Source: a virus. From it: a stretch of 44,874 nucleotides of DNA. Where the stretch lies: IMG/VR virus record IMGVR_UViG_3300015360_000075, positions 1 through 44,874 of that record. One strand, given 5' to 3'. The stretch's first letter is position 1. Each line of letters opens with the position of its first letter. Positions 1 through 44,874 of this stretch are shown one piece after another. The position numbers and the translations under genes are program-made. The notes under the pieces are model-generated. The model was not told where the DNA came from. It saw only the letters and a list, made by a program, of their open reading frames with translations, and made no database searches.

Positions 1-402
1 CGTTCCCGGTCTTGCCGTTATCCCAGGACAGGTTGGTGGTCGGAAAGACCCCAGAACCAAACTCAACGAGACCCGTACCAGCCGGGTCCACGATGATATT
101 CCCGTCCGCATTCGTAGAAAAAAGAGTGTTGCCATCCAGACGCAAGTTATCAACGTTGACCTGCCCCGTTACGCCAAGAACCCCGGTGACAGTCTGCGCC
201 AGCGTCGTCATGGCTGACTGGACATCGACCACTGTGGTCGCCAACAGATTCAAGGCCCCCGAGGTCGACGACAACGTGTTGCCATCCACCCGGAGGTTGT
301 CGACGTTAAGCTGGGTACCAGTGATGACCCCCGCCTGAAGCGTCCCAGTGGTGCTCAGGTTCTCGTTGTCGAACGATATGGCCCCAGAGCTATCAGTGAT
401 GC
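1..402. repeat. Left copy of a 402-bp near-identical terminal repeat
   Basis: Bases 1-402 align without gaps to 44473-44874 with 17 substitutions by direct reading. The repeat lies inside the minus-strand tail-fibre gene. In the fibre reading frame five codons change the amino acid (N/D, L/F, V/L, T/N, A/S) and the other changes are silent, so the two copies look like natural variants kept under protein-level selection, not random read errors. The simplest reading is redundancy at the ends of a circular or circularly permuted genome assembled from a mixed population. A true diverged duplication inside the fibre gene is the alternative. Confidence 0.9.
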
Positions 403-2141: not shown

Positions 2142-2564
2142 CTACGCAACTGCGCGAAGTACAGAATAGGCCAAAATATGATCCGTTGACGGATCGCCAC
2201 TCAACGTAACCGTGATGGTATTGGTAGTAAGCACCGCTGCGACAATGGCCCGTGGCGTCCCGCCAGCGGTCTGAACCGTTACGTGAACCACATCCGTCGC
2301 AGCAAGACCCGTGACCGTGATGACTTCCGTCGCATCACCGCCAAGCGTCGTGAAATTACCAGCGAACTTGACTACGTGACTCGGCGTCACACCCGCCGCC
2401 AACTTAGCGAGCGTAACGTTACCATTCAAAATCTTCGCCGTCGTCACAGCGTCATCAGCTACGCTGTCACCAGCCGAACCAATCAACGTACCTAGCTGCA
2501 CCTTCCGCGCAACCGAACCCGTCTTGCTATTCAGTAAAAACAACTCTTCTGCGGTCAACGCCAT
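2142..2564 (-). CDS. Probable head decoration or stabilising protein (140 aa)
   Basis: ATG at 2564 with AGGAG upstream (AGGAGAAGTGAT). The first 50 residues include a VTTAKILNGNVTLAKLAAGV stretch common in phage virion proteins; the remainder is a Val/Thr-rich beta domain. It lies directly after the major capsid gene and its terminator, the usual place for a decoration protein. Assignment rests on position and composition, not on a recognised named family. Confidence 0.65.
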   Translation of the reverse strand: MALTAEELFLLNSKTGSVARKVQLGTLIGSAGDSVADDAVTTAKILNGNVTLAKLAAGVTPSHVVKFAGNFTTLGGDATEVITVTGLAATDVVHVTVQTAGGTPRAIVAAVLTTNTITVTLSGDPSTDHILAYSVLRAVA

Positions 2565-2573
2565 ATCACTTCT

Positions 2574-2619
2574 CCTAAAAGAAGGGACTGCGGTTTACCC
2601 GTTACCGGAACACAGCCCC
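2574..2619 (-). terminator. Intrinsic terminator after the major capsid gene
   Basis: Reading leftward, the arm at 2619-2611 pairs with the arm at 2592-2584 (9 pairs, two G-U), followed by TTCTTTT (2583-2577). It begins 15 bases past the capsid gene stop. A partial terminator here would keep capsid message high relative to the downstream genes. Confidence 0.65.
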
Positions 2620-2634
2620 AATGTTGAGAAACTC

Positions 2635-3906
2635 TTAGTACGCTGGAATCGAGTACATGACTCCACACCGACATGGGGCATGAAGGATCAGCTCGCCGTA
2701 GAAGCGCACGTCAACGATGTAAACGAAGCCCGTCGTCGCACGCTTGACGTAGTAGCCGTTTCCGTTCGGGTCAATGTGACGCTCAAAAAACCCGTTCGAG
2801 TGAAGCTTGAACGCGCTCATGTCAAGGTAATACATCAAGTCATCGTCCATCTCCTGGACTGCGACGAGCTTGAGGTTGCCCTTCACGCTACCGATCGTGA
2901 CTTCGGTGTAGCCGTACACGGACGCCTTCGTCTCGACGTGGCGGTACCCACCGCTACCGGCTTCAAGAAGCTTGAACACCGAGCCAATGTGCTTCAGCGA
3001 CATGACGACGCGATCAGCGTGGCCCTTACCGAGCTTCAGAATCCGTGTCCAGCCATCGAAGATCGAGTCGAGGATATTGGACGCCGAAACGCTCGCACCC
3101 GAAATCGCGATCGACTGGAGGTACGGGTACGCCAACTTCGACTTACCAAACAAATTCGCAGAACCACCCTGCGCCGAAGGAAGAAGCTGACTGCGAAGCG
3201 ACGTAAACGCATTCGCCGCCGTCTCTGCGCCAGGAATGTAAACACGCGCATTCTGCGCCGTCGTCATGTTGTTAGCCGAAAAATCGACCACCGTAGCGCC
3301 ACCACGAGTCGTCACAAGTACAACTTCATTCGTGTTGACGTTGACCGTACTCACATAGCCTTCGAGCGCCGCAGAGTTGTCATCGTCAATGATGACCTTC
3401 TGCTTCAACTCGAACCGCTCGACCCGATCGACCACGATCAAGCCGGTGTTCGCCGTCGCATTGCTCGTCAACGTCGCAAAGTGCGCTCCGTTCAGAAGCA
3501 TGGTCGACACCATGTCCTTCATGCCATCGACGAAATCTTCGATCTGGTCAGGCAGAATGCGAAGAAAGGAATCCTTGTTGACGAGACCCTTCTTGCGAGC
3601 GCCTTCAGGAACGTGCTGATGAAGATCCTTCGAGTTGAATTTCAATGTCCCCCAAGTCTCTTTGTAATCCTCTACGACTCCTCTCACAAATTCATAATCG
3701 CTAATATCATTTTCGGCTGTGAGGCCACCTTGAGAAAACGAACTCCCGCGAGCTCCACGAAATGGAACTGGCAGCGAACCGCCTTTCCACTTCATGTTCT
3801 TCTCAACGTTCTTGATAAGCCAGTTGCGCTCAGTCAACTCTTCCATCAAGAGGTCGTATGCCAAATGCTCGTTCAGCATGTCGTCGAATAGGGCTAACGT
3901 CGCCAT
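2635..3906 (-). CDS. Major capsid protein (423 aa)
   Basis: It starts at ATG 3906, 24 bases after the scaffold gene, and stops at 2635. Length and order (portal, scaffold, coat) match the P22-like coat family (about 430 aa, HK97 fold). No long cleaved delta domain is apparent; the separate scaffold gene fits this. A Gly/Val/Thr-rich insertion at about residues 170-215 could form the insertion (I) domain. The C-terminal ~60 residues are rich in aromatic beta-strand residues. The family call comes from synteny and size; key residues are not diagnostic. Confidence 0.8.
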   Translation of the reverse strand: MATLALFDDMLNEHLAYDLLMEELTERNWLIKNVEKNMKWKGGSLPVPFRGARGSSFSQGGLTAENDISDYEFVRGVVEDYKETWGTLKFNSKDLHQHVPEGARKKGLVNKDSFLRILPDQIEDFVDGMKDMVSTMLLNGAHFATLTSNATANTGLIVVDRVERFELKQKVIIDDDNSAALEGYVSTVNVNTNEVVLVTTRGGATVVDFSANNMTTAQNARVYIPGAETAANAFTSLRSQLLPSAQGGSANLFGKSKLAYPYLQSIAISGASVSASNILDSIFDGWTRILKLGKGHADRVVMSLKHIGSVFKLLEAGSGGYRHVETKASVYGYTEVTIGSVKGNLKLVAVQEMDDDLMYYLDMSAFKLHSNGFFERHIDPNGNGYYVKRATTGFVYIVDVRFYGELILHAPCRCGVMYSIPAY

Positions 3907-29376: not shown

Positions 29377-29612
29377 TGGCCACGTCAGGACTACTCGCAG
29401 CCATCAGGTTCCTGATCCTATGGGGACCGACCGCTCTGACCCTGATCGAAGAGATAAGTAAGTTGATGAAGCGCATGGTGAAAGACGACGACCGTAACGA
29501 CATCAACGCGCAACTGGCGGACATCATCGCCCATAACTACGTTGAACGAAGCCGTCGCATAAGAGCTCTCAATGAGCTGCTATGCCAAGCCGAAGAGTGC
29601 CAAAGCCGCTGA
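29376..29612 (+). CDS. Small membrane protein, holin candidate (78 aa)
   Basis: The ATG is in a TAATG overlap with the previous gene. One transmembrane helix at about residues 5-24 (LLAAIRFLILWGPTALTLI) is followed by a charged amphipathic C-terminus with lysines and arginines. With a following endolysin this fits a single-helix holin or pinholin-like protein. The lysis role comes from position. Confidence 0.5.
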   Translation: MATSGLLAAIRFLILWGPTALTLIEEISKLMKRMVKDDDRNDINAQLADIIAHNYVERSRRIRALNELLCQAEECQSR

Positions 29613-29629
29613 GTCAGGGATAAGTAAGC

Positions 29630-29664
29630 GGCGCGGGAGTCATCGACTTCCGCGCCTTTTCTTT
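29630..29664 (+). terminator. Strong intrinsic terminator between holin candidate and endolysin
   Basis: An 11-bp stem (29630-29640 with 29646-29656, one G-U) with loop CATCG, followed by TTTTCTTT. It stands 10 bases before the endolysin start and overlaps the endolysin's ribosome site region (GGAGA at 29665-29669), so read-through would control endolysin production. Confidence 0.85.
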
Positions 29665-29673
29665 GGAGACGAC

Positions 29674-30114
29674 ATGGAACACGCACTCTTCACCGTCATG
29701 ACTAGTTGCCTTGGCGTCCCCTACATATGGGGTGGCAACAACCCCATGACTGGCATGGACTGCTCAGGCTTCGCAATATGGTGCTTACGGTCCATAGGAC
29801 TATGGAAGGGAGGCGACGACACCGCCCAAGGACTCTACGTCCACTACAAGACCGCTGGCCACGTCCTCACCATGGACGACGAGCTACCACTTGGAACACT
29901 GCTGTTCTTCGGAACGTCACTCGACACCATCACCCACATCACCATGGCCATCGACGATGACCTGATGATCGAAGCCGGTGGAGGGGGATCAAAAACAAAA
30001 ACCCCAGCCGACGCTGCGAAGGCTGGAGCTTGTGTTCGTATCAGACCGATATCTACTCGGAAGGATCTTGTCGCCCTGGTTTGCCCTTACCGCTTGAGAA
30101 GGCCTTTAGGATAG
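29674..30114 (+). CDS. NlpC/P60-type endolysin (146 aa)
   Basis: ATG 29674 with GGAGA upstream. A single compact NlpC/P60 domain: GVPYIWGGNN, catalytic Cys in GMDCSGFA (C30), THITMAI with H88, and MIEAGG (E100) as a likely third residue. No signal peptide and no cell-wall binding domain. It would cleave peptide stems of host peptidoglycan at the end of infection. Its 3' end overlaps the convergent minus-strand gene by 62 bases. Confidence 0.88.
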   Translation: MEHALFTVMTSCLGVPYIWGGNNPMTGMDCSGFAIWCLRSIGLWKGGDDTAQGLYVHYKTAGHVLTMDDELPLGTLLFFGTSLDTITHITMAIDDDLMIEAGGGGSKTKTPADAAKAGACVRIRPISTRKDLVALVCPYRLRRPLG

Positions 30115-30313
30115 CCATAGACGCTTCCTTCTTCTCAATGCACTTAGCAACAGCCTTCATCTTCTTAGCGTCACTGATGATCTCAGCAGCCTCCTGAAGC
30201 GTGCGAGCCCATCCGTCGACCTCGTACTTTTCGAACCCACCGTACTCAGTCTTCCTCTTCAACTCCTGAGCATCCATCTCCACGCGAATCGCACGACTAG
30301 TCTTCCTTGCCAT
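30053..30313 (-). CDS. Hypothetical basic helical protein, last gene of the minus unit (86 aa)
   Basis: ATG 30313 has GGAGG six bases upstream. It begins MARKTSRAIRVEM and is Lys/Glu-rich and helical throughout (AAEIISDAKKMKAVAKCIEKKEASM), with a basic tail. It follows the large ejection protein with a 17-base overlap. It could be a small virion-interior protein. Convergent overlap with the endolysin gene is unusual. Confidence 0.65.
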   Translation of the reverse strand: MARKTSRAIRVEMDAQELKRKTEYGGFEKYEVDGWARTLQEAAEIISDAKKMKAVAKCIEKKEASMAILKAFSSGKGKPGRQDPSE

Positions 30314-33300
30314 CTCTATCCTCCTTCTTTTTTTGACGAACCATGCGAGCGTAGGACTCACTGACTTTCACGGTCTGCATCGGTGACAACCGATTGCTAA
30401 TCGCCTCACCGAGCGTCTCCTTACCAGACGCTACCTTACCCGCGCTACCCGCTATCTGATCCACCAGACCATGCGGCCAGAGCGTAGACAAAATCTTGTC
30501 AAACGTGACCAGCTTGTCTGACGTCGTAAACGGGTTTCCGCTTTCATCGACCTCCGCCAATCCAATAGCAGAATATTTATGGCCTCTACTGAAGAGGAAT
30601 TTCTTCCCATCTTTAGAACGGGATGGATAGAGCTCCTGGTCGTCGAAAAGATCATTGCCTGTAGCCAGCTCATATGCCGCCTTCGGAAACGTATGACCCT
30701 TGTCTAGTAACTGCTTTGGGACCTTACCCTGAAGCACCCGTTCCACTCCCCCCTTGACGTCAAGCATCTTCGCGGCGTCGTACATCGACCCCGATGGATA
30801 TATCCCGTACTTCATTCGCCCCTGTTCATCTCGCCCCAACTTTCGCGCACCACTATCTTGTATGTACGGCGACAACCCCTGCTTATCGTGCGCCGATGGA
30901 TCCTCACCGACGTTACGACGCACCTTCTCCAGCGCGACGAAGCGACCTACTTGCTCGGGGCTATATGCAGCCCGCAGCCAGTACGAAAGGTTCTTCGAGT
31001 AGAAACTGTAGAACGGCACGATCCGCTTAAATACTGCGGCCTCGAAATGCGTCACATCGCTATAGTCAAAGAACGTTCTCTTCACGACATCAGCGGCCAT
31101 ATCTTTGATCTTACCCAACTCCTTTGGCCCCGCGTTCTTGAACATCGGCGACCGCTCCAACGCTTCCTTGACCCTGAGATAGGTCATCATGCGAGCGGTA
31201 CCTTCCATATGCCCACCGATCCGACCAACCGCCTTCATCCACGGATTCGACAACCACGCCTCTGCACCGCGTTTCAGTAGCGACATAGGATCATTCGCCC
31301 TAGCCGCCTTCAACTGATCGGGTGTTTGTAGAAACGACTTCGTCCCATCATCCGCTAACGTCTTAAGCATCCCGCCATCGAGTACGCCACGCTCCAACGC
31401 CTCGGCCAAGTCAGCGCTCTTGTGTGCGCCTCTGACGTCATTCTTCACAAGAGAGTAAACGTCGTGACTAACACCCTTACGCAACGCACCGAACGACGCC
31501 GCATCGAGAAGCCCCTGCGTCCCACTCTCGATGAAACTTTTGGCCATATTGTCAGCCATATTATTCTTCAACCAGCTCAGGCTGAAATACAACATGTTGG
31601 CTTTCGCGAAGTTCGTGACCTTATCGAACCCACCCAGCACAGTCTCTAACGCACGCCAACCCGTCTGCTTCGCTGCCGTAGCGTTGTAGTCCATCATAAA
31701 CTTCATCGCCGTCTGCTCGGCATCATCGAGAAACGATTTCGAGAACTTCTCGGCGTATAACGCATATGACTTATCGCGTGCTCTCGCGAACACATCCGCC
31801 GCGACCTTATCGCCAGCCTTAGCTGCTGCCTCAAGCTGATCCGGCGCGAGCTGACGACCCGTCTGCTTCGAATACTCTTTCAAAGCCATCTGAATAGGAG
31901 CGCCCGACCTATCCAGACTCTCCGCTTTAGCGATGCCTAAGTTCTGCATCGCACCTTGGACCTTCGAGAAGTTTGACTTCTCGTACACGTCGTCAATGTG
32001 CCACTTGATACCGACGATGCCGCGCCCAGTCTTCAAGTCTGGCTTCCCATGACTCAACCCGAACACATCCGTATTCAACTTATTGATGACGGTATCGTTG
32101 TGACGCCCCCACGCGACGACCGCATCAGCGACCTCTTTCTTTTCCTTTTGAAGCAAAACTGGTAGAAAGTCCCGCTCAATACTCTGCTCGACACGACGAT
32201 TGAAATTGTTCATCACCCGCTTGTACGCTGGGTGCTTACTGTCAATCATCAACACCTTAGATTCCAACACACCCCGACGACGAAGAAACTCAGTCTTCAA
32301 CGTCTGCATCATCTCAGCGGCCCTGATCTTATCGACAGGATCCGTCAGCTCTTTCAATGCTTGGAATCTTCCTTGCTGTATCCACGACGCGATATTCGTA
32401 ACTCTCTGCATGCCTTTCCCAAAGATATCTCTCGACGTAGAGAAGTCTCTGAACTTACTGCCCCGTGTCCCCTCGGCATACATGTCAGAAACTTGATTGA
32501 ATCCCGTCTTGAAGAACGCCGACGCTTTGTCAAGACCTCTTCCAGACCCCACTCCAATACCTGCCCCGACTGCCGCACCGAGTAATTTGGTTCCGAGATC
32601 TTCGTCACCGTCCACGGACCCAACACCATACACGGCACCGATAGCCGCCCTGGTTGCCACCTGACCACGAGCGAACCTAATCGCATCGGCTGTCTTCAAC
32701 CCCAGCTTGGCGTCAATGGCACCACGATGGATCCCAGGAAGCGCCTTAGCGAGTCGCCCGCCACCCTTCACCACCGAACCCCACCCCGCGCTCACAAGCG
32801 TCAAAGGATCCGTAAAGATATCAGTCGCCAAATCCAACCCGAAGTCACCGACGTCACCAATCGTAAAGTTGCCATCGTCGACCCCGATCCTCACCTTACC
32901 GACCCCAGCGGCCTCTGTTGCCGTGTCCCTGAGATTCGTAGAACTCGTGTAGCGCTTCTTGTCAGCGGCATCGGCCATAAACTGAGTCGCCTTGTCGATA
33001 CGACCCAGGCCCTCCCCCTCAATGGCACCCTTGATCCCTGACCGCGCCACGTTGCCGGCATAGTCCAAGGCCCCAAAGACGTGATCCAGCCAACCCTCCT
33101 CTTTGACGTACTGATCCTTGCGCGATATCCCACGCTTGGTGAGTGCCTGCTCCTCGTGATCCTCACGGAACTTGTCGAAGTAGGGCTGCACCTTCTTAGA
33201 CTTCTCAGCCAAAGCGGGGTCCAGACCCTTGAACTTCGCGAACGACTCCTTGATGGTCATCGTCGACGGATCCAGGGGAGCCCTATCGTCGTGCCCCTTA

Positions 33301-33911
33301 GCCTGATTCCCACGCCCTAAAGCCCTACGGTATGCCTCAGGGTCATCGTCAGCGTACTCGGGGCTCCAGACCCCCTTTCCGGCCTTCTTAGCGACATCCT
33401 GCGCGTCAGTCAGCTCCTTCTGCATCCCCTTCGACAACTGACCAATGTATTTCGGGTTGTCGTACACCTTAGCGAACCCAGCCCTGACAAGCTCCACGTT
33501 CAGGTTCTTGTCACCTGCGTAAAGAATAGACACGTCCCGACCATAGAAGTCCCTGTGACGACTACCGACCTTTATCTCACCGTGGTCGCCCACCATCCCG
33601 TCCAGGTAAGCGTGAGCCGCTGGCCCAAGACCCTGACTACTCTCTGGAGCGTCAATCCCAGCAAATCGCGTCGACGTCCTCATCTTCCCACGACTGATCT
33701 CCATCGTGTCGCCATCTAGCGACCGCTGAAACTCCCCACCCTTAGACGTGCGCCACTCCCCAGCCAAGTCACCCGTAGACTTCGACGCCTGGAAACGCTG
33801 AAAGGCAGACGCCACATCGCCGGCTACTTGGCCGGCGTGTGTCTCAGTGGGTTTTACAGTCGTCTGTTGCTGCGCTTTCCACGCCGCATGACGTTCCTCA
33901 AGAGTCATCAT
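30297..33911 (-). CDS. Large internal (ejection) protein with N-terminal staphylococcal-nuclease domain (1204 aa)
   Basis: Residues about 60-185 form an SNase/thermonuclease-like domain with all main catalytic positions: LDGDT (D66, D68), RFAGIDAPE (R82, D87, E90) and GRDVSILY (R125). The T of the usual D-T-P-E is A here. The remaining ~1000 residues are helical with Gly/Ala segments and resemble the large T7 gp16-type ejection protein in place and size. The start overlaps the previous stop. It would travel in the capsid and enter the host with DNA. T7 gp16 has a transglycosylase at this end; here it is a nuclease. Confidence 0.82.
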   Translation of the reverse strand: MMTLEERHAAWKAQQQTTVKPTETHAGQVAGDVASAFQRFQASKSTGDLAGEWRTSKGGEFQRSLDGDTMEISRGKMRTSTRFAGIDAPESSQGLGPAAHAYLDGMVGDHGEIKVGSRHRDFYGRDVSILYAGDKNLNVELVRAGFAKVYDNPKYIGQLSKGMQKELTDAQDVAKKAGKGVWSPEYADDDPEAYRRALGRGNQAKGHDDRAPLDPSTMTIKESFAKFKGLDPALAEKSKKVQPYFDKFREDHEEQALTKRGISRKDQYVKEEGWLDHVFGALDYAGNVARSGIKGAIEGEGLGRIDKATQFMADAADKKRYTSSTNLRDTATEAAGVGKVRIGVDDGNFTIGDVGDFGLDLATDIFTDPLTLVSAGWGSVVKGGGRLAKALPGIHRGAIDAKLGLKTADAIRFARGQVATRAAIGAVYGVGSVDGDEDLGTKLLGAAVGAGIGVGSGRGLDKASAFFKTGFNQVSDMYAEGTRGSKFRDFSTSRDIFGKGMQRVTNIASWIQQGRFQALKELTDPVDKIRAAEMMQTLKTEFLRRRGVLESKVLMIDSKHPAYKRVMNNFNRRVEQSIERDFLPVLLQKEKKEVADAVVAWGRHNDTVINKLNTDVFGLSHGKPDLKTGRGIVGIKWHIDDVYEKSNFSKVQGAMQNLGIAKAESLDRSGAPIQMALKEYSKQTGRQLAPDQLEAAAKAGDKVAADVFARARDKSYALYAEKFSKSFLDDAEQTAMKFMMDYNATAAKQTGWRALETVLGGFDKVTNFAKANMLYFSLSWLKNNMADNMAKSFIESGTQGLLDAASFGALRKGVSHDVYSLVKNDVRGAHKSADLAEALERGVLDGGMLKTLADDGTKSFLQTPDQLKAARANDPMSLLKRGAEAWLSNPWMKAVGRIGGHMEGTARMMTYLRVKEALERSPMFKNAGPKELGKIKDMAADVVKRTFFDYSDVTHFEAAVFKRIVPFYSFYSKNLSYWLRAAYSPEQVGRFVALEKVRRNVGEDPSAHDKQGLSPYIQDSGARKLGRDEQGRMKYGIYPSGSMYDAAKMLDVKGGVERVLQGKVPKQLLDKGHTFPKAAYELATGNDLFDDQELYPSRSKDGKKFLFSRGHKYSAIGLAEVDESGNPFTTSDKLVTFDKILSTLWPHGLVDQIAGSAGKVASGKETLGEAISNRLSPMQTVKVSESYARMVRQKKKEDRDGKED

Positions 33912-34939
33912 TACTGCGACCCATCCGGCCCCGACGCATTCTGAAGGTAGAACTCCAACGCCGTGTTGTAGCCCATACCAGGCTTAGCCTGACCCTCGGC
34001 TTCGAGATGCTTACCGAAGTCAAACACCTCGTCATTGATCGGTCCCATACGAAGCTCATGACTACGATCCTCAGGACCAGCCCCCGGATACCTCTTCTTC
34101 GCGATAGCACTCAAAGCCTTTTTACTTTGAGTGAAGTAGCTCCTCTTCTCAGAGGACTCTCGTCTATCAGACCCACCACTGCGAGCAGCCGACGCCTGGT
34201 TGCCACGGATCTTGGCGAGCTCGACCTTGATGTCACGATTTTTAGCACCCTCTTCCTCGCGAAACTTCTGACGAAGCTCCTCGGCTTTAACCTGAGACGA
34301 GGCGTACTCCCTCTTGTATTTGATGTCGGCTTCCTGTTGGAACAACTTCGACTTGAGACCAAGTACGACCTTCTCACGCTCATCGTCACCCATAGGCGCA
34401 TCATACGAACCAAGTAGCTTGCTACCCGTCCATGAATCCGTCAGCGCGATCATCGGCGACAGATCCAACTTGCTGCCCTTCTTACCCTCGTACCGATCAA
34501 TCAGCCCCTTCAACTCTTTCAGTCCACCGTCGTCATCGGGAGCATGCGCCTCTGCGGCGGCCTCCAATACTTTCTGATGATCCTCAGGAGGTGCCCCTTG
34601 AGGAATCTTAGCCTTTGGCAACGGACGCCCAGCGACAGCTTTATTGGCACCCACCTGGCGCTTGAACTGTTCCCACTTGTCGTCCATCACACCAGTGGGC
34701 TCAGGACGCATCCCCCCACCAGCAGCGTGACCCTGAGACGCACCATGCTGGTCGCGGACCATCGGATCCTTTAGCTTCCCATCAGAATAACTATCACCAC
34801 CGAACATCTGGTCAGCCGTTGGTTCAGGAGGACCGACCATCTCCTTGATGCCCAACTGCCGACGAGCCATCGACATATCCTGATCAGACAACCCAGGATC
34901 GAATTGATGCTTGTAGGCATTTGGAATGCGCTGGCCCAT
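33911..34939 (-). CDS. Internal virion protein candidate (342 aa)
   Basis: Its stop overlaps the next ATG, and its start is 11 bases after the previous gene stop. The sequence is polar, Gly/Pro/Lys-rich with little hydrophobic core in the first half, then a charged helical region (YKREYASSQVKAEELRQKFREEE). This fits a T7-like gp15-type slot between two ejection proteins, but no sequence motif confirms it. Confidence 0.65.
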   Translation of the reverse strand: MGQRIPNAYKHQFDPGLSDQDMSMARRQLGIKEMVGPPEPTADQMFGGDSYSDGKLKDPMVRDQHGASQGHAAGGGMRPEPTGVMDDKWEQFKRQVGANKAVAGRPLPKAKIPQGAPPEDHQKVLEAAAEAHAPDDDGGLKELKGLIDRYEGKKGSKLDLSPMIALTDSWTGSKLLGSYDAPMGDDEREKVVLGLKSKLFQQEADIKYKREYASSQVKAEELRQKFREEEGAKNRDIKVELAKIRGNQASAARSGGSDRRESSEKRSYFTQSKKALSAIAKKRYPGAGPEDRSHELRMGPINDEVFDFGKHLEAEGQAKPGMGYNTALEFYLQNASGPDGSQ

Positions 34940-34950
34940 AACGAACCCCC

Positions 34951-35304
34951 TTAGGCGTACATGTTCCGCTGTTTCATCATCATGTCCTGCATACCAGCAC
35001 CAGGCATCTGACCAGCCGCACCAGCGCCAGCGCCCTGAGCGACGTTACCTGTCATACCGTATGCATTCCCACCAGCCGCCTCACCGCCGCCCATAGACTG
35101 ACCCATCATCGCACCCGTCATGCCACCCTGCATGACACGTCCCATGTGGTCGGGAGACGCGACGTTCTCACCAGTCTTGCCAGTGAACGTCGACCAACGA
35201 GACTTCGTTGATTCCACCTTCCTCGCCTCGTGAGCTTTCTTTTCCTCGCCCTGTGCTTTCACAGCACCCAGCGCTGCACCAATTGCAATTGCCCATGGAT
35301 TCAT
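34951..35304 (-). CDS. Gly/Met-rich small internal virion protein candidate (117 aa)
   Basis: The N-terminus is hydrophobic (NPWAIAIGAALGAVKA), followed by a basic segment and a tail full of Gly, Met, Ala and Gln (MGQSMGGGEAAGGNAYGMTG). Low-complexity proteins with a hydrophobic start in this position are typical of ejected membrane-pore components. Confirmation would need virion proteomics. Confidence 0.6.
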   Translation of the reverse strand: MNPWAIAIGAALGAVKAQGEEKKAHEARKVESTKSRWSTFTGKTGENVASPDHMGRVMQGGMTGAMMGQSMGGGEAAGGNAYGMTGNVAQGAGAGAAGQMPGAGMQDMMMKQRNMYA

Positions 35305-35316
35305 CGTCAGACTCCC

Positions 35317-36435
35317 TTATACGCCGAGTACCTTATTGAAGAACCCACCGGACCCACTACCTTGCCGCGCCTGAGCATTTGCTGCGTGCTGATTGCCAAT
35401 GACAGATCCCTGCGTATTCCAACTATCGAGCGCGTATGCGTTCTTACCCCTGACATCACCGACCAACGTCGCCTGATTGATAGCGTTGACTTGATTCTGT
35501 TGCCCGGCGTTAAACTGCGACGCCGCCGCCAGCCCAGCATTGTTGTTCTGATCGACACTCGCCCACTGATTAGCCTTCTGCATATTGAGACCAGCATTGA
35601 ACTGCTGCTCGTTCAGATTCACACCCTGGTTCTGGAACGCTACCTGATTCTTCACGTCTCTATTCTGCTGCTGAAGACCAGTGTTGTACTGATCCATCTG
35701 CAAGTTCATTCCAGGCATCTGAGTCTGAAGCTGCATCCGTTGTGCTTCGTCATTAATACCGATCCCGAGCTTATCCCGCTGACCCTGCCGAGCCACGCCT
35801 TGACGAGCCATCATGGAATCCCGTGACGATCCACGCGCCAAACGCTCCCGTGACCCACCTTCGAGACCACCTTGCATCGCCATGTCATTCGTGGCCTGGT
35901 TGAAAGCATTGCGTTGCTCAAAGCCGACCTGGCCCATTTGATCTTGCTGTTGCATCGCCTGCTGATCGTAAAGCTTCTTAGCCCACGGCGACGTATCAGT
36001 ACCGAACGCTCTCTTCTGAAGCGCGTCGATGTTGCCTTGAGCCGCTCCAAAGTTCTGACCGGCGTTTACGTCACCCGTGTAACCGACATCGTCGACACCG
36101 ACTTCCTTCGAAAGACCCATCCGCTTATCTAAATCGACCGTACTCGTCGAAAACGATTTGGCATCCTCAGGACCTTGCAACCTGTACTTGTTGTCGAGAG
36201 TACCGTCACGCTTCTGAAGCGACGCATACTTGGGCTGCTTAGCCATAAACTGATCCATCTGCTGAGTCTGAGCAGCAATCATCTTCTCGGTCTCAGCGTC
36301 ACGACCCTTCTGCTTTTGACCAAAAATGTCCAACGGGTCAGCATACGAAGCTATCTGAGCAGCCCCCCCGCTGATGCCTGACGACTTGGCGAAATCACTG
36401 ACCGCACCACCCACGGTCTTTACTGCATTACCCAT
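35317..36435 (-). CDS. Asn/Gln-rich internal virion protein candidate (372 aa)
   Basis: Strongly rich in Gln and Asn with little hydrophobic content (QQQNRDVKNQVAFQNQG), N-terminal amphipathic segment (VGGAVSDFAKSSG). It starts 3 bases after the GNAT gene and is followed by the 117-aa gene. It resembles gp14-type and related DNA-ejection proteins by composition and place. Confidence 0.65.
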   Translation of the reverse strand: MGNAVKTVGGAVSDFAKSSGISGGAAQIASYADPLDIFGQKQKGRDAETEKMIAAQTQQMDQFMAKQPKYASLQKRDGTLDNKYRLQGPEDAKSFSTSTVDLDKRMGLSKEVGVDDVGYTGDVNAGQNFGAAQGNIDALQKRAFGTDTSPWAKKLYDQQAMQQQDQMGQVGFEQRNAFNQATNDMAMQGGLEGGSRERLARGSSRDSMMARQGVARQGQRDKLGIGINDEAQRMQLQTQMPGMNLQMDQYNTGLQQQNRDVKNQVAFQNQGVNLNEQQFNAGLNMQKANQWASVDQNNNAGLAAASQFNAGQQNQVNAINQATLVGDVRGKNAYALDSWNTQGSVIGNQHAANAQARQGSGSGGFFNKVLGV

Positions 36436-36438
36436 TGC

Positions 36439-36789
36439 CTAGGCCTCCAGTCTCTTCGTGAAGTAAATCAGACCATCTTGACCGACATGATCCAGAACCA
36501 TGCCATACCCAAGAAGCACCCTGAGACTGTCAGTAGACCCCTTAGCGCGTGCGCTAACAGACCCAAGCATAACCTTGATCCCACGGGCCACAGCATCCGC
36601 AGCGATCCTGTCTGCCATCCCAGCAGCCGCGTGCGAGCGACGGTGCCTCTCTACAACGTAGATGTCCTCGATGTAGACGACCGTCCCTAACACGGGATGC
36701 TCGACATCAAAATGGATTGCGAACCCGTAATCGGACTCACAGATCGATTTGCCAAGTCGCTCAAAGATGTACTCGCCGTAAAGACTCAT
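36439..36789 (-). CDS. GNAT-like acetyltransferase (116 aa)
   Basis: A short GNAT-type pattern: EDIYVVERHRRSHAAAGM (the P-loop-like R/Q-x-x-G/A region), GIKVMLGSVSA, then SLRVLLGYGM. A small GNAT beside the ejection genes is a recurring feature of podoviruses; the substrate may be a virion protein or a host target. The start overlaps the previous stop (ATGA). Function inferred from the family. Confidence 0.75.
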   Translation of the reverse strand: MSLYGEYIFERLGKSICESDYGFAIHFDVEHPVLGTVVYIEDIYVVERHRRSHAAAGMADRIAADAVARGIKVMLGSVSARAKGSTDSLRVLLGYGMVLDHVGQDGLIYFTKRLEA

Positions 36790-37460
36790 GCCTCACTATC
36801 CTCGTAATGGCTGCTATCGCCCTCAATGTCAGTGTTCCCATCGACGATCATCGTCTTCAACGTGTCACGCATCAGATCACGCTTCTCGTCGAGCTCGGCC
36901 TTAAAGAAGACTAGTCTCGGATGACCCATCTTGCTGGCCACCTGCACCTTGACGTGACGCAATATAAAGTCGATGAACTCAGGGATATCGATCACCGAAG
37001 CGTCGTCGACGACAGCCGTTGCGTTACGCACGAACCAACGACGCAACACCGTTGAACTCGTTTCCGTAGCCGCTGGATACACGACGAACTTCGTACCCGC
37101 CGACCCAGTGTTATTTTCGATGTTGTAGCGATAGTCCTCATCGCCATCGACATAGGGGATCTCCCTCAGTTTGATACGTCCAACCTCATACGCTTCCTGA
37201 CCGCTCTTGTAGTAGCAAAGGCGGATCTTGTTTGCGTAGATGTTGCTTGGCATCGGAAACTCTGACGTGCCATTGACGAGAGCGACGAAATCGCTCGTCA
37301 GAAAGTAGTCTTCATGGAGCTGATGAATGATCGCTTCAGCTTCGTCGATCGCACTGTTGAACAACCTAATCATCTCCGGATCGTCAAGGAAACTCTCCCC
37401 CTGAATATCCAGCTCATCTTCGACAGCACGCTTCGCGTTACCGTATGTCCACAACTGCAT
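36786..37460 (-). CDS. Tail adaptor / head-tail connector protein (224 aa)
   Basis: ATG 37460 has CGGAGG upstream. Size, order (before the nozzle protein in the minus direction) and the helical N-terminus with SAIDEAEAIIHQLHEDY fit the T7 gp11/P22 gp4-type adaptor family. The C-terminus is acidic. It would sit below the portal and attach the tail. Confidence 0.72.
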   Translation of the reverse strand: MQLWTYGNAKRAVEDELDIQGESFLDDPEMIRLFNSAIDEAEAIIHQLHEDYFLTSDFVALVNGTSEFPMPSNIYANKIRLCYYKSGQEAYEVGRIKLREIPYVDGDEDYRYNIENNTGSAGTKFVVYPAATETSSTVLRRWFVRNATAVVDDASVIDIPEFIDFILRHVKVQVASKMGHPRLVFFKAELDEKRDLMRDTLKTMIVDGNTDIEGDSSHYEDSEA

Positions 37461-37462
37461 CG

Positions 37463-37804
37463 TTAGTCCTCCGCGTATGAGCCGATGAAGGCCCTGACAG
37501 TAACCGTTTCACCAGCGACCAACCCAGCCACCGTGAAACTCACGTTCGTGCGATCGAACAACCCATAGTTCCATTTGAACGTACCCGCACCTTCGGTCAT
37601 GACGCTCGTCTGCATCACATCACGCGGACGAAACCCGAAGTTGTGCAGGTACAGATACGTCCCATTCGCTACCCGCGAAATCTCGACGTGCTTCCCTATG
37701 AACTTTGAAAACAGATCCTCGTCAGAAAGCTTCTGCAACCGATCGAAGTTCTCGCGCACGACAGGATCCTGGACTTCGGCGATCACCAGCTCTAGGTCAC
37801 GCAT
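37463..37804 (-). CDS. Hypothetical tail-region protein (113 aa)
   Basis: The start ATG 37804 overlaps the stop of the nozzle gene by 8 bases. The N-terminal half is helical (DLELVIAEVQDPVVRENFDRL), the C-terminal half beta-rich and Gly/Thr-rich (FTVAGLVAGETVTVRAF). It sits between nozzle and adaptor genes, so it is probably a minor tail component. Family not recognised. Confidence 0.65.
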   Translation of the reverse strand: MRDLELVIAEVQDPVVRENFDRLQKLSDEDLFSKFIGKHVEISRVANGTYLYLHNFGFRPRDVMQTSVMTEGAGTFKWNYGLFDRTNVSFTVAGLVAGETVTVRAFIGSYAED

Positions 37805-40061
37805 TGCTGCCAGTCTCCGCGCCGTCAAAGCCCTTAGTAGCTTCGCCGAACATTTCCCAATTAATCGCGTAGCTCTCCAGACTCAAACGCTCTCCCTTAC
37901 GAAACCCTTTGATGATCCACGCATAGCTACCGTCTGCTGGCAACAATCCAAAGGATTCCTCAAGCGTCAGCGTATCGCCAGACACCGACAGGATCTTGTA
38001 ACCAAAGACATACCCATCGATATCGAGATGCAACTTGTAGCCGACGACACCAGCAGGCCACTCCTCTGCCAAATCATCGAAGATCGCAGTGTTGCCAGAC
38101 GCATCCGTGGTCACGTTCCCATAGCTATCTGAATTCAAAATGATCGTATTGGAATTGGTCATGCGAACTTGCTTGTAGATGCACCGTAGGCTTCCCTTGG
38201 GAAACATACGCTCGGCTAGTATCGTCCCACCGTAATTCCAAATGATCGAGGAATCACCCCACACCGTATCGACATCACCCCACACCACGTTGTTACGAAA
38301 CCGAACCTCTTTCAAATCCTTCGTAACGCCAGAGTCATCGTTAATCGACTGAATCAACAACGACAAATTCGTCTCATTCCTAGCGACGACCGTAATCTTA
38401 GGCGTAAACTTCTTCTGAATCTCCGTACCGAACGAAAACGCCACTGACACGTACTCATAAATGACTGACTTCGATGCCCACGCACTTGGCAGCGCTGCGG
38501 TATCGACTACTGGATCTGTGAACAGCCCCGCCTCGTGACGAAAACAGTACCCACGATTGTCTGCGCGAACCAATTCCGATTCGATGAACGCCAGTGACGT
38601 GGGAGCCATATCCACATCACTCGACCACGTCGTCACAGCCATCTCAGGACCGATACCACCCTGATACGGATCAATTACCCAGACATGATCGCAATCGGTC
38701 TTCGTCGCATCCGTCGTCATCGTCCAATAAATCCGACCGTCGACTGGATCAAGCGCCCCGTGAATACGACTACGCATCCCCCCAGTAGCCGTCGCAGCCT
38801 TGTAACTCGCGTTCAAATGGTTCGTGACCTTGACCATCCGAAAGCCATCAGTGAAATAGAACCCGTCGACCCCGGCGAAGTACATGCCCCCCAGAACTTG
38901 CACAATCGAATTGTGACTGACACAGCCCACGGTGCTACTGATGATCCGCTTTCGCGTAAACCCGCGCCCCTGGTTGTCGACGAACCCCTCAAAGCGATAT
39001 GCCTTCGTCTTAGTGAAGACCACCGGATAAACATCAATAACTCCGGCACCAACGATGTCCCCATCGACGTCCATAAAGTGAGCGCCTGGACAAGCATCTG
39101 GGTCATCCTTAAGCGCCTGACGAGCTCGGTACCCCTTTTCCTCCGACCCTTCCTTGACGTTCAGGTACCAAGCGACACCATCCGCGACGATCACAAACTT
39201 CGCCTGCGGAGGCGGATCGTTCTCGACTCTATCGCCCTCGGTGTAAATGGACGTCGTCAACAGAGCATCCGTTATCGTGTCGCTATACGTCGTCGTCCCA
39301 TTCGTGACCTCGCCGGAATACTTGAGGTCGACACCGCCGTTGACACTCCGATACACCTCGACCTTGATTGTCGCCGTGTCGTAACACTCAGTCGCACCGT
39401 TACTCAGCACGGGTATCACGGACACTGCGCAAGGCGTTCCAATGCCAATCGCTGACCCCAACGCATCCACTGCCTGGACAAACGTCAATGGCCCACGATC
39501 AACGTGCGTCACCGTGCCGACCGTGTACGTAAACTTGTGACAGAAAGCGTACAGGTACGAGAGACTCACCGCCCCGACTGAATCCAACGTACACACGGGT
39601 GCAGACGCCAACGCTGGCAGACCTAGATTCCTAATCCGCCACACACCGCCAGAATCCTTGAAGACCTTCCGCGGACTCGAGTACGTGTCCGTCGTGACGA
39701 GCAGGTGCTTATTCCACTCAGCCACTGAAATCTGTGACGCCGTAGTCCCAGCCCCAAACGCTGGATTTGACGACACCGGCCCCACCAACGTGTTCCATCC
39801 CGACGAAACGAAGTACAACGCTCTTGCTGACTGCTGAAACAACACCGACTCAAAGTAGACGATCTTACCAATCCGACTCACACCCGCTGGGATCTGATAG
39901 TAATCGACGTCGTAAATCTCTGACCCTGGTCGCTCGACAGGCTTCCTATTGCGACTGATCAAAAAATTATTGAGCCGCTGAGAACGATTCAGCGGCCCAT
40001 TGACGTAGTGATCGGTAATCCCACCAGACCAGTCGTCTATCTTTAACGCTTGGATATCCAC
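37797..40061 (-). CDS. Tail nozzle / stabilisation protein, gp12- or P22 gp10-like (754 aa)
   Basis: The start is GTG 40061 with GAGG upstream. It is a large beta-rich protein (long runs of Val, Thr, Ser, Asp strands) with MDIQALKIDDWSGGITD at the N-terminus, a form shared by T7-type tail tubular B and P22-type stabilisation proteins. It would form the nozzle of the short tail. Neighbours are the adaptor and the fibre module. Confidence 0.78.
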   Translation of the reverse strand: MDIQALKIDDWSGGITDHYVNGPLNRSQRLNNFLISRNRKPVERPGSEIYDVDYYQIPAGVSRIGKIVYFESVLFQQSARALYFVSSGWNTLVGPVSSNPAFGAGTTASQISVAEWNKHLLVTTDTYSSPRKVFKDSGGVWRIRNLGLPALASAPVCTLDSVGAVSLSYLYAFCHKFTYTVGTVTHVDRGPLTFVQAVDALGSAIGIGTPCAVSVIPVLSNGATECYDTATIKVEVYRSVNGGVDLKYSGEVTNGTTTYSDTITDALLTTSIYTEGDRVENDPPPQAKFVIVADGVAWYLNVKEGSEEKGYRARQALKDDPDACPGAHFMDVDGDIVGAGVIDVYPVVFTKTKAYRFEGFVDNQGRGFTRKRIISSTVGCVSHNSIVQVLGGMYFAGVDGFYFTDGFRMVKVTNHLNASYKAATATGGMRSRIHGALDPVDGRIYWTMTTDATKTDCDHVWVIDPYQGGIGPEMAVTTWSSDVDMAPTSLAFIESELVRADNRGYCFRHEAGLFTDPVVDTAALPSAWASKSVIYEYVSVAFSFGTEIQKKFTPKITVVARNETNLSLLIQSINDDSGVTKDLKEVRFRNNVVWGDVDTVWGDSSIIWNYGGTILAERMFPKGSLRCIYKQVRMTNSNTIILNSDSYGNVTTDASGNTAIFDDLAEEWPAGVVGYKLHLDIDGYVFGYKILSVSGDTLTLEESFGLLPADGSYAWIIKGFRKGERLSLESYAINWEMFGEATKGFDGAETGSNA

Positions 40062-43687: not shown

Positions 43688-44874
43688 TTATCCGATGCCA
43701 ATGAGGGTGTACGTCCCGACCGGGAGATTGACGGGCGACGTCACAGTCACCTCCGTCTGAGTCTTCGTGATCTTGATGCCTGTTAGCTGCTCGAACGTCA
43801 GCGAGTTACTACTGAATGACCAGACGCACAGACGCGCATCCGACACATCGCTACTGACCGTATACGTCGCCGTCGCAGTCGAACCATTCCACGTCACAGC
43901 GTCCTGATTGACGTACTTCTCGATCGAAATCTTCTTCCACGTCCCACCGAGATCTACGAAGAGATCGTTTTCATCGGTGTTGAAGTACAGACGCCCTTTG
44001 GTACCCGCTGATGCTGATGGAGCACCCGCCGTAGTCGCGTTATGCGCCCGCAGCCCAATCGCTTGACCACCGAGATACAAATCCTTGAACCGAAACCCTG
44101 ACTCTCCGAGATCGAACGTGTTGTCCGTTCCCGCAATCACGTCACTCGCGCAAATGATGTCGCCCTTAGTGGCATGCGACGTCGAATTCAGCGTGAGGTT
44201 GTTACCACTGGCGGTGCCTCCACGAAGCGTCTGCCCACCGCTACGTCCGAGCAACAAAGCGTACTGACTATGATCGTCATCACCGAGACCACTGATCGTA
44301 CCGTGATCGACCTCGCTGTCTGGAACCGAGGCGACCCATTTCGTCCCGTTCCAGAAAATGGAATGTCCCGTCGCTACACCAGCGTTGATGTCCCTTAGCG
44401 ACTGAAGAACCGACGATGCTATCTCCGTCGTCCCGTCAGCTATCGCTCCACCGAGCCACAACTTGTTCCAGACGTTCCCGGTCTTGCCGTTATCCCAGGA
44501 CAGGTTGGTGGTCGGAAAGACCCCAGACCCAAACTCAACGAGACCGGTACCAGCCGGGTCCACGATGATATTCCCGTCCGCATTCGTAGAAAAAAGAGTG
44601 TTGCCATCCAGACGCAAGTTATCAACGTCGACCTGCCCCGTTACGCCAAAGACCCCGGTGACCGTCTGCGCCAGCGTCGTCATGGCTGACTGGACATCGA
44701 CGACTGTCGTCGCCAACAGATTCAAGGCCCCCGAAGTCGACGACAACGTGTTGCCATCCACCCGAAGGTTGTCGAGGTTAAGCTGGGTACCGGTGATGAC
44801 CCCCGCCTGAAGGTTCCCAGTGGTGCTCAGGTTCTCGTTGTCGAACGATATGGAACCAGAGCTATCCGTGATGC
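43688..44874 (-). CDS. Tail fibre protein 1, C-terminal part (runs off the right edge)
   Basis: Open to base 44874 without an upstream start and stopping at 43688. It joins the 5' part at bases 1294-1 across the circular junction. It contains NLSWDNGKTGN, HSQYALLLGRSGGQTL and LYFNTDENDLFVDLGG, elements of shaft-type and head-domain fibre modules, and ends with a beta-rich tail (VTSPVNLPVGTYTLIGIG). The HSQYALLLGR segment is characteristic of phage fibre regions. Confidence 0.8.
   Translation of the reverse strand, partial: ITDSSGSISFDNENLSTTGNLQAGVITGTQLNLDNLRVDGNTLSSTSGALNLLATTVVDVQSAMTTLAQTVTGVFGVTGQVDVDNLRLDGNTLFSTNADGNIIVDPAGTGLVEFGSGVFPTTNLSWDNGKTGNVWNKLWLGGAIADGTTEIASSVLQSLRDINAGVATGHSIFWNGTKWVASVPDSEVDHGTISGLGDDDHSQYALLLGRSGGQTLRGGTASGNNLTLNSTSHATKGDIICASDVIAGTDNTFDLGESGFRFKDLYLGGQAIGLRAHNATTAGAPSASAGTKGRLYFNTDENDLFVDLGGTWKKISIEKYVNQDAVTWNGSTATATYTVSSDVSDARLCVWSFSSNSLTFEQLTGIKITKTQTEVTVTSPVNLPVGTYTLIGIG
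44473..44874. repeat. Right copy of the 402-bp near-identical terminal repeat
   Basis: This is the partner of bases 1-402. If the circle is closed by removing this copy, base 44472 joins base 1, the molecule is 44,472 bp long, and the fibre gene reads in frame across the join (1294 + 785 nt = 693 codons including stop). The exact in-frame closure supports circularity. Confidence 0.9.

What the first reader, a model, noticed from the sequence alone, without database searches (positions are those of the whole stretch)
30297..33911. Ejection protein carries an intact staphylococcal-nuclease domain
The N-terminus of the ~1200-residue internal virion protein has an SNase-like fold with the main catalytic positions (D66, D68, R82, D87, E90, R125) kept, in the place where T7 gp16 has a lytic transglycosylase. 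A nuclease delivered with the genome could degrade host or competing nucleic acid, process the entering DNA end, or cut RNA. I do not know a described function for such a fusion.
Basis: partly seen in the sequence, partly recalled or inferred. Interest (0 to 1): 0.65.

Follow-up and report, generated by a model that had tools for sequence, protein, structure and literature searches.

The report
Phage injection protein carrying a nuclease
A virus of bacteria has joined a complete DNA/RNA-cutting enzyme to the front of a very large protein that it probably packs in its particle and injects with its genome, whereas about 70 related proteins in other phages, including its two closest relatives, lack the enzyme.

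Summary
The 1204-aa ORF runs on the MINUS strand and has a genuine staphylococcal-nuclease (SNase) domain at residues ~59-190 (PF00565 E=2e-13; AlphaFold2 pLDDT ~94-98; SNase crystal structures are the best fold matches). Residues equivalent to SNase D21, R35, D40, E43 and R87 are all kept. The remaining ~950 residues belong to a widespread family of 800-2300-aa phage proteins. P0001 is the last long gene of the late (head/tail) module and follows the same tail genes as its two closest orthologues. Those (E=6e-98, 2e-78) align from residue ~253-274 on and have only 62-84 residues where P0001 has the nuclease. In ~70 non-redundant members only P0001 has an SNase; one other carries a C5-cytosine methylase and one a transglycosylase. 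So this looks like a conserved ejection-type core to which enzymes are occasionally added. Packaging and injection are inferred, not shown; homology to T7 gp16 was not found. A precedent exists: the BtI1 baseplate-hub protein has an SNase where its relative has a transglycosylase (PMC2147016), function unexplained. Verdict: real; a new variant of a known kind; most likely a delivered, probably Ca2+-gated, nuclease acting in the envelope compartment.

The parts
30297..33911 (-). P0001, 1204-aa fusion: SNase + giant late-module (probable ejection) protein
   Evidence: ORF; family HMM built without it matches at E=7e-26, 0 of 200 shuffles
33738..33911 (-). Residues 1-58: N-terminal helices (4-15, 26-45), no recognised domain, mostly low confidence
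   Evidence: AlphaFold2 with alignment
33342..33737 (-). Residues 59-190: SNase domain (D68, R82, D87, E90, R125 = SNase D21, R35, D40, E43, R87)
   Evidence: Pfam E=2e-13, PDB phmmer, AlphaFold2/Foldseek, invariant columns
33156..33341 (-). Residues 191-252: linker between nuclease and core
   Evidence: pLDDT ~50 over residues 200-230; the closest orthologue aligns only from residue 253
30300..33155 (-). Residues 253-1204: conserved giant-protein core
   Evidence: L372 E=6e-98, L363 E=1.8e-78
32676..32963 (-). Residues 317-412: N-terminal conserved block with the DIFTDPLT motif
   Evidence: family HMM domain; D368 P369 invariant in 19 members
30624..31685 (-). Residues 743-1096: C-terminal conserved block with FDYSDVTxFE...KRxxPFY
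   Evidence: family HMM iE=4e-24; a profile of this block found 60 loci
33911..34939 (-). 342-aa late gene directly upstream, its stop codon overlapping the start codon of P0001 by one base (TAATG)
   Evidence: sequence; weak syntenic match in L363 (E=7e-4)
34951..35304 (-). 117-aa late gene, syntenic in L363
   Evidence: phmmer E=7e-7
35317..36435 (-). 372-aa late gene, syntenic in L363 and L372
36786..37460 (-). 224-aa late gene, syntenic in L372, L363, L366, L367, L374
   Evidence: phmmer down to E=1.5e-55
37797..40061 (-). 754-aa late virion protein (phrog_511 'internal virion protein' E=2e-12)

Best explanation
P0001 is a giant late-module virion protein, most likely an ejection (internal virion) protein, whose lineage has, in place of the short N-terminal tail of its orthologues, a catalytically complete SNase plus linker (shown: anatomy, orthologues without SNase; inferred: virion location and ejection). 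The nuclease travels as cargo of the ejection protein. Because classical SNases need millimolar Ca2+, it should be silent against the phage's own packed DNA and become active where Ca2+ is available, i.e. at the cell surface, wall or periplasm during ejection (inferred). There it would cut exposed nucleic acid, such as DNA of competing phages or extracellular DNA, while the phage's own DNA passes through the ejection channel (inferred, least certain step).
For: SNase fold and catalytic set intact. Core is a member of a giant phage protein family, last long gene of the late module, after the same tail genes as in orthologues, and beside lysin or endopeptidase genes in named phages. Closest orthologues L372 and L363 align from residues 253/274 with 62/84 residues in front and no SNase, so the domain looks like an N-terminal gain. 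The family also carries a C5-cytosine methylase (L061) and a transglycosylase (L319), i.e. enzymes are added to a conserved core. Enzymes on ejected proteins are established: T7 gp16-N transglycosylase (PMC8954989), injected polyvalent proteins (PMC5512222). Ca2+ dependence of SNase is established knowledge, not tested here.
Against: No proteomics: no test of packaging or ejection. Core has no detectable homology to T7 gp16; the only notable solved match is 9k3a_A 'Tail protein' with the broad family profile (E=4e-10), in part generic helix and not recovered with two other profiles. No strongly hydrophobic transmembrane segment (best 19-residue Kyte-Doolittle mean 1.13). Single record: no second assembly of the fusion was found. 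Where the N-terminus ends up after ejection, and its metal need, are unknown.
Confidence: 0.5

Rival explanations
1. Cytoplasmic effector: the ejected SNase enters the cytoplasm and degrades host DNA or RNA, or competing plasmids and phages, early in infection, as other injected polyvalent proteins are proposed to act.
For: Other injected multidomain phage proteins carry nucleic-acid-targeting domains (PMC5512222); catalytic set intact; another family member carries a DNA methylase, whose substrate would be intracellular or entering DNA.
Against: SNase is non-specific and would endanger the incoming genome; cytosolic Ca2+ is normally far below what SNase needs (established knowledge). No protective partner was identified.
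Confidence: 0.24
2. The nuclease acts during assembly or on the phage's own DNA: for example trimming the DNA end, resolving packaging intermediates, or processing the entering genome end.
For: Encoded with head/tail genes.
Against: SNase has little sequence specificity (established knowledge); about 70 relatives carry the same core without it.
Confidence: 0.07
3. The domain is used as a nucleic-acid-binding or structural module only, anchoring the protein to packaged DNA; catalysis is incidental.
For: The OB fold binds nucleic acid; the domain sits on a protein expected to lie near DNA (inference).
Against: All catalytic and Ca2+-ligand residues are kept and invariant in the alignment, which a binding-only role would not be expected to maintain.
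Confidence: 0.1
4. The fusion is recent and neutral, or an assembly join, with no role in infection.
For: Found once in ~70 family clusters and in one record only.
Against: One uninterrupted ORF; GC and GC3 similar to the rest of the gene; active site fully kept despite ~21-31% identity to other viral SNases.
Confidence: 0.09

Closest known systems
Staphylococcal nuclease / thermonuclease family (PF00565), e.g. SPbeta YokF and stand-alone viral SNases
   Same: Fold and the D21, R35, D40, E43, R87 set
   Different: Those are stand-alone enzymes (nearly all of ~240 viral SNase ORFs are 100-250 aa); here it is fused to a 950-aa late phage protein
T7 gp16 and podovirus ejection proteins
   Same: Giant protein at the downstream end of the late module; N-terminal enzyme followed by a long core (PMC8954989)
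   Different: Enzyme is a nuclease, not a transglycosylase; no sequence homology of the core detected; packaging not shown
BtI1 homologue of phage 0305phi8-36 gp147 (baseplate hub)
   Same: N-terminal SNase where the relative has a transglycosylase; function unexplained (PMC2147016)
   Different: Baseplate hub of a large phage-like element; relation of the carrier to P0001 was not tested
Injected polyvalent proteins (PMC5512222)
   Same: Enzymatic domains on large proteins encoded with virion genes; proposed to be injected
   Different: P0001 has one recognised enzyme domain; the paper does not mention SNase
Giant late proteins of Cellulosimicrobium DS1, Arthrobacter Jasmine gp28, Microbacterium Shocker gp37, Podoviridae ctEqG8
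   Same: Same conserved blocks, same position at the end of the late genes
   Different: No SNase in these genomes
A0A6J5NQ80, 1342-aa 'SNase-like, OB-fold' protein of an uncultured Caudovirales phage
   Same: Giant phage protein with SNase (fold match E=5.5e-8)
   Different: Sequence and context not available here; homology of the carrier unknown

Membership tests
Staphylococcal nuclease (PF00565) | Profile match above curated cut-off | tested here: met
   51.1 bits against 21
Staphylococcal nuclease (PF00565) | SNase OB fold with C-terminal helices | tested here: met
   AlphaFold2 pLDDT ~94-98; PDB best hits all SNase
Staphylococcal nuclease (PF00565) | Catalytic R35, E43, R87 and Ca2+ ligands D21, D40 | tested here: met
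   R82, E90, R125, D68, D87
Staphylococcal nuclease (PF00565) | Ca2+-dependent DNA/RNA hydrolysis | not testable with these tools
   needs purified domain
Giant late-module phage protein family (DS1/Jasmine/L372 type) | Similarity with both conserved blocks in order | tested here: met
Giant late-module phage protein family (DS1/Jasmine/L372 type) | Downstream end of late operon after conserved tail genes | tested here: met
   named phages
T7 gp16-like ejection protein | Sequence homology to gp16 | tested here: inconclusive
   no gp16 match among solved chains with three profiles; gp16-like proteins diverge rapidly (PMC8954989)
T7 gp16-like ejection protein | N-terminal transglycosylase | tested here: not met
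   SNase instead; no SLT by Pfam. The feature is phage-specific even among podoviruses (PMC8954989)
T7 gp16-like ejection protein | Membrane-spanning segments | tested here: inconclusive
   best Kyte-Doolittle window mean 1.13 at residues 439-457
T7 gp16-like ejection protein | Present in virion and ejected | not testable with these tools
   needs proteomics
Polyvalent protein | Two or more disparate effector domains in one protein | tested here: not met
   only SNase recognised by Pfam
Polyvalent protein | Encoded among virion genes | tested here: met

The most novel reading that the evidence does not exclude
A widespread family of giant phage ejection proteins serves as a delivery chassis to which individual phages add different enzymes (nuclease, DNA methylase, wall hydrolase). 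In this phage the cargo is a Ca2+-gated nuclease that stays off inside the capsid and switches on in the host envelope to destroy rival or surface nucleic acid.
Probability: 0.25. Interest if true: 0.75.

Novelty: new variant of a known kind. Interest (0 to 1): 0.48.

Why it matters
A nuclease packed next to the phage's own genome raises a direct question of control: how the genome is spared and where the enzyme acts. If the chassis reading is right, natural differences in the enzyme on one ejection-type protein (nuclease, methylase, transglycosylase, or none) give a comparative handle on where its parts go during infection, which is unresolved for most podoviruses.

Tried and rejected
Single-sequence AlphaFold2 of residues 1-230 was useless (pLDDT 39.5); the aligned run was used instead. 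Direct searches with P0001 or its SNase+linker in IMG/VR found no relatives. TerL kin (24 contigs) that reach this region have non-homologous proteins in the same slot and no SNase, so the late module is mosaic. Alignments A1 and A4 were too divergent for pattern scans. The longer SNase ORFs among ~240 viral SNases were mostly SNase-Excalibur or SNase-LTD proteins, not virion proteins. phrog_8809 (2317 positions) also holds an SNase, function unknown. SNase is not mentioned in the polyvalent-protein and jumbo-phage papers. Considered and rejected: degenerate enzyme (active site intact); considered and thought unlikely: assembly artefact (one ORF, similar composition).

Full report
1. Observation. 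The ORF at 30297-33911 lies on the minus strand and encodes 1204 aa (P0001). Pfam finds one domain above its cut-off, SNase (PF00565, E=2.1e-13, 51 bits against 21). The phmmer alignment to solved thermonucleases (E=1.7e-11) pairs D66/D68/R82/D87/E90/R125 with D19/D21/R35/D40/E43/R87 of SNase; the last pairing is by the YGR motif. AlphaFold2 on residues 1-230 with 24 viral SNases gives pLDDT ~94-98 for most of 61-190, and Foldseek returns staphylococcal nuclease structures first (E~1e-11, TM by target ~0.8-0.87). All catalytic columns are invariant. No other SNase is in the record.

2. What carries it. The first tblastn gave one weak hit of the C-terminus, to a 1783-aa protein of Cellulosimicrobium phage DS1. 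From there, proteins of Arthrobacter phages Jasmine/Adat/Brad, Microbacterium phage Shocker and 'Podoviridae' ctEqG8 followed, all at the end of the late genes and mostly beside lysin or endopeptidase genes. Profiles of the FDYxxxTxFE...KRxxPFY region then gave 17, 60 and 4 loci in IMG/VR and 4 in bacterial MAG contigs. An HMM built from 18 relatives without P0001 matches P0001 at E=7e-26 in two collinear blocks (residues 317-412 and 743-1096) and none of 200 shuffles.

3. Orthologues without the nuclease. L372 (IMGVR_UViG_3300027996_000077) has a 1205-aa protein whose residue 63 onwards aligns to P0001 residues 253-1195 (E=6e-98); L363 (IMGVR_UViG_3300035701_000061) has a 1259-aa protein whose residue 85 onwards aligns to residues 274-1164 (E=1.8e-78). 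Upstream in both come homologues of window genes 36786-37460 and 35317-36435, with 37797-40061 and 37463-37828 also in L372 and 34951-35304 and 33911-34939 also in L363. Neither protein has an SNase. Thus ~250 N-terminal residues (short helices, SNase, linker) stand where orthologues have 62-84 residues. Among 83 family sequences in 66 clusters, only P0001 has an SNase. None of the 48, 21 and 25 related records searched has one anywhere; several of these are fragments, so absence from a genome is not proven.

4. Enzymes on the family. Pfam over 59 rows (P0001 and 58 relatives) found a C5-cytosine methylase inside the L061 protein (residues 616-979, E=1e-15) and a transglycosylase (SLT) at the C-terminus of the 2286-aa L319 protein (E=2e-7). 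Most members carry no recognised enzyme. This is the strongest support for reading the SNase as an enzyme added to a conserved chassis.

5. Mechanism. Shown: fold, catalytic set, fusion in one ORF, family and synteny, orthologues without the domain. Inferred: the protein is packaged and ejected (late module with portal and terminase; phrog_511 'internal virion protein' label of the neighbouring 754-aa protein; podovirus label of a relative; a weak profile match to a solved 'Tail protein', 9k3a_A). T7 gp16 was not recovered by any profile, so I do not file P0001 as a gp16 homologue; it may work like one. In T7 the gp16 N-terminal enzyme acts in the periplasm (PMC8954989). If P0001 is oriented likewise, and if its domain needs millimolar Ca2+ as classical SNases do (established knowledge), it would be silent in the capsid and cytoplasm and active in the envelope compartment. 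That reading avoids self-destruction and is the one I prefer, at about 0.5. A cytoplasmic effector role is the main rival.

6. What is known. SNase genes are common in viral contigs but nearly all stand alone (about 240 sampled, two capped scans). A 2007 comparative-genomics paper described an N-terminal SNase on the BtI1 homologue of the 0305phi8-36 baseplate hub gp147, in place of a transglycosylase, with unexplained purpose (PMC2147016). BFVD lists a 1342-aa SNase-like protein of an uncultured phage (A0A6J5NQ80). The polyvalent-protein survey does not mention SNase. So the kind (enzyme on a virion or injected protein) is known, an SNase on a virion protein has a precedent, and this carrier with this cargo is a new variant.

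7. Limits. One record only; no second assembly of the fusion. No proteomic or biochemical evidence. Host unknown. Foldseek TM normalised by the query is ~0.5 because the model includes low-confidence flanks.

Noticed in passing
window 1-402 and 44473-44874: The two ends share 402 bp at 95.8% identity, open in frame within tail-fibre-like ORFs, both of which match the same ~695-aa proteins of relatives: probably a complete genome of ~44.5 kb whose ends overlap over strain variation.
   Followed up: partly
L061:5510-10906: A giant family member carries a C5-cytosine DNA methylase domain (residues 616-979) with PECQACS, ENH and RER motifs: possible injected methylase.
   Followed up: partly
L319:4122-10979: A 2286-aa family member has a transglycosylase (SLT) domain at residues 2131-2243.
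   Followed up: no
L327, L328, L353, L372, L363, L318, L048, L312, L332, L347 (giant ORF N-termini): Many members begin with 2-4 copies of a short motif that differs between phages (FVPVEKKSS, ITYLDEEPSK, VYIPGQLSR, ILDKYRR, EEDPFKNPALLEGI); P0001 shows no such repeat and has the SNase region there. Possibly a packaging or partner-binding signal.
   Followed up: no
window 29572-30114 (+): NlpC/P60 peptidase gene convergent with P0001 (PF00877 E=3.5e-13), probably the lysin.
   Followed up: no
window 2524-3891 (+): A 455-aa ORF lies antisense over the 423-aa minus-strand ORF 2635-3906, a capsid-protein candidate by position; the antisense frame is open also in the near-identical contig L003. 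Probably a by-product of codon usage.
   Followed up: no
window late module versus TerL kin G001-G024: TerL and portal relatives carry unrelated proteins in the P0001 slot while the 754-aa and 224-aa genes are shared: mosaic exchange of the ejection-type genes.
   Followed up: partly
phrog_8809 (via L290, L294): A 2317-position PHROG family of unknown function contains an SNase at positions ~1020-1270: another giant phage protein with SNase.
   Followed up: no
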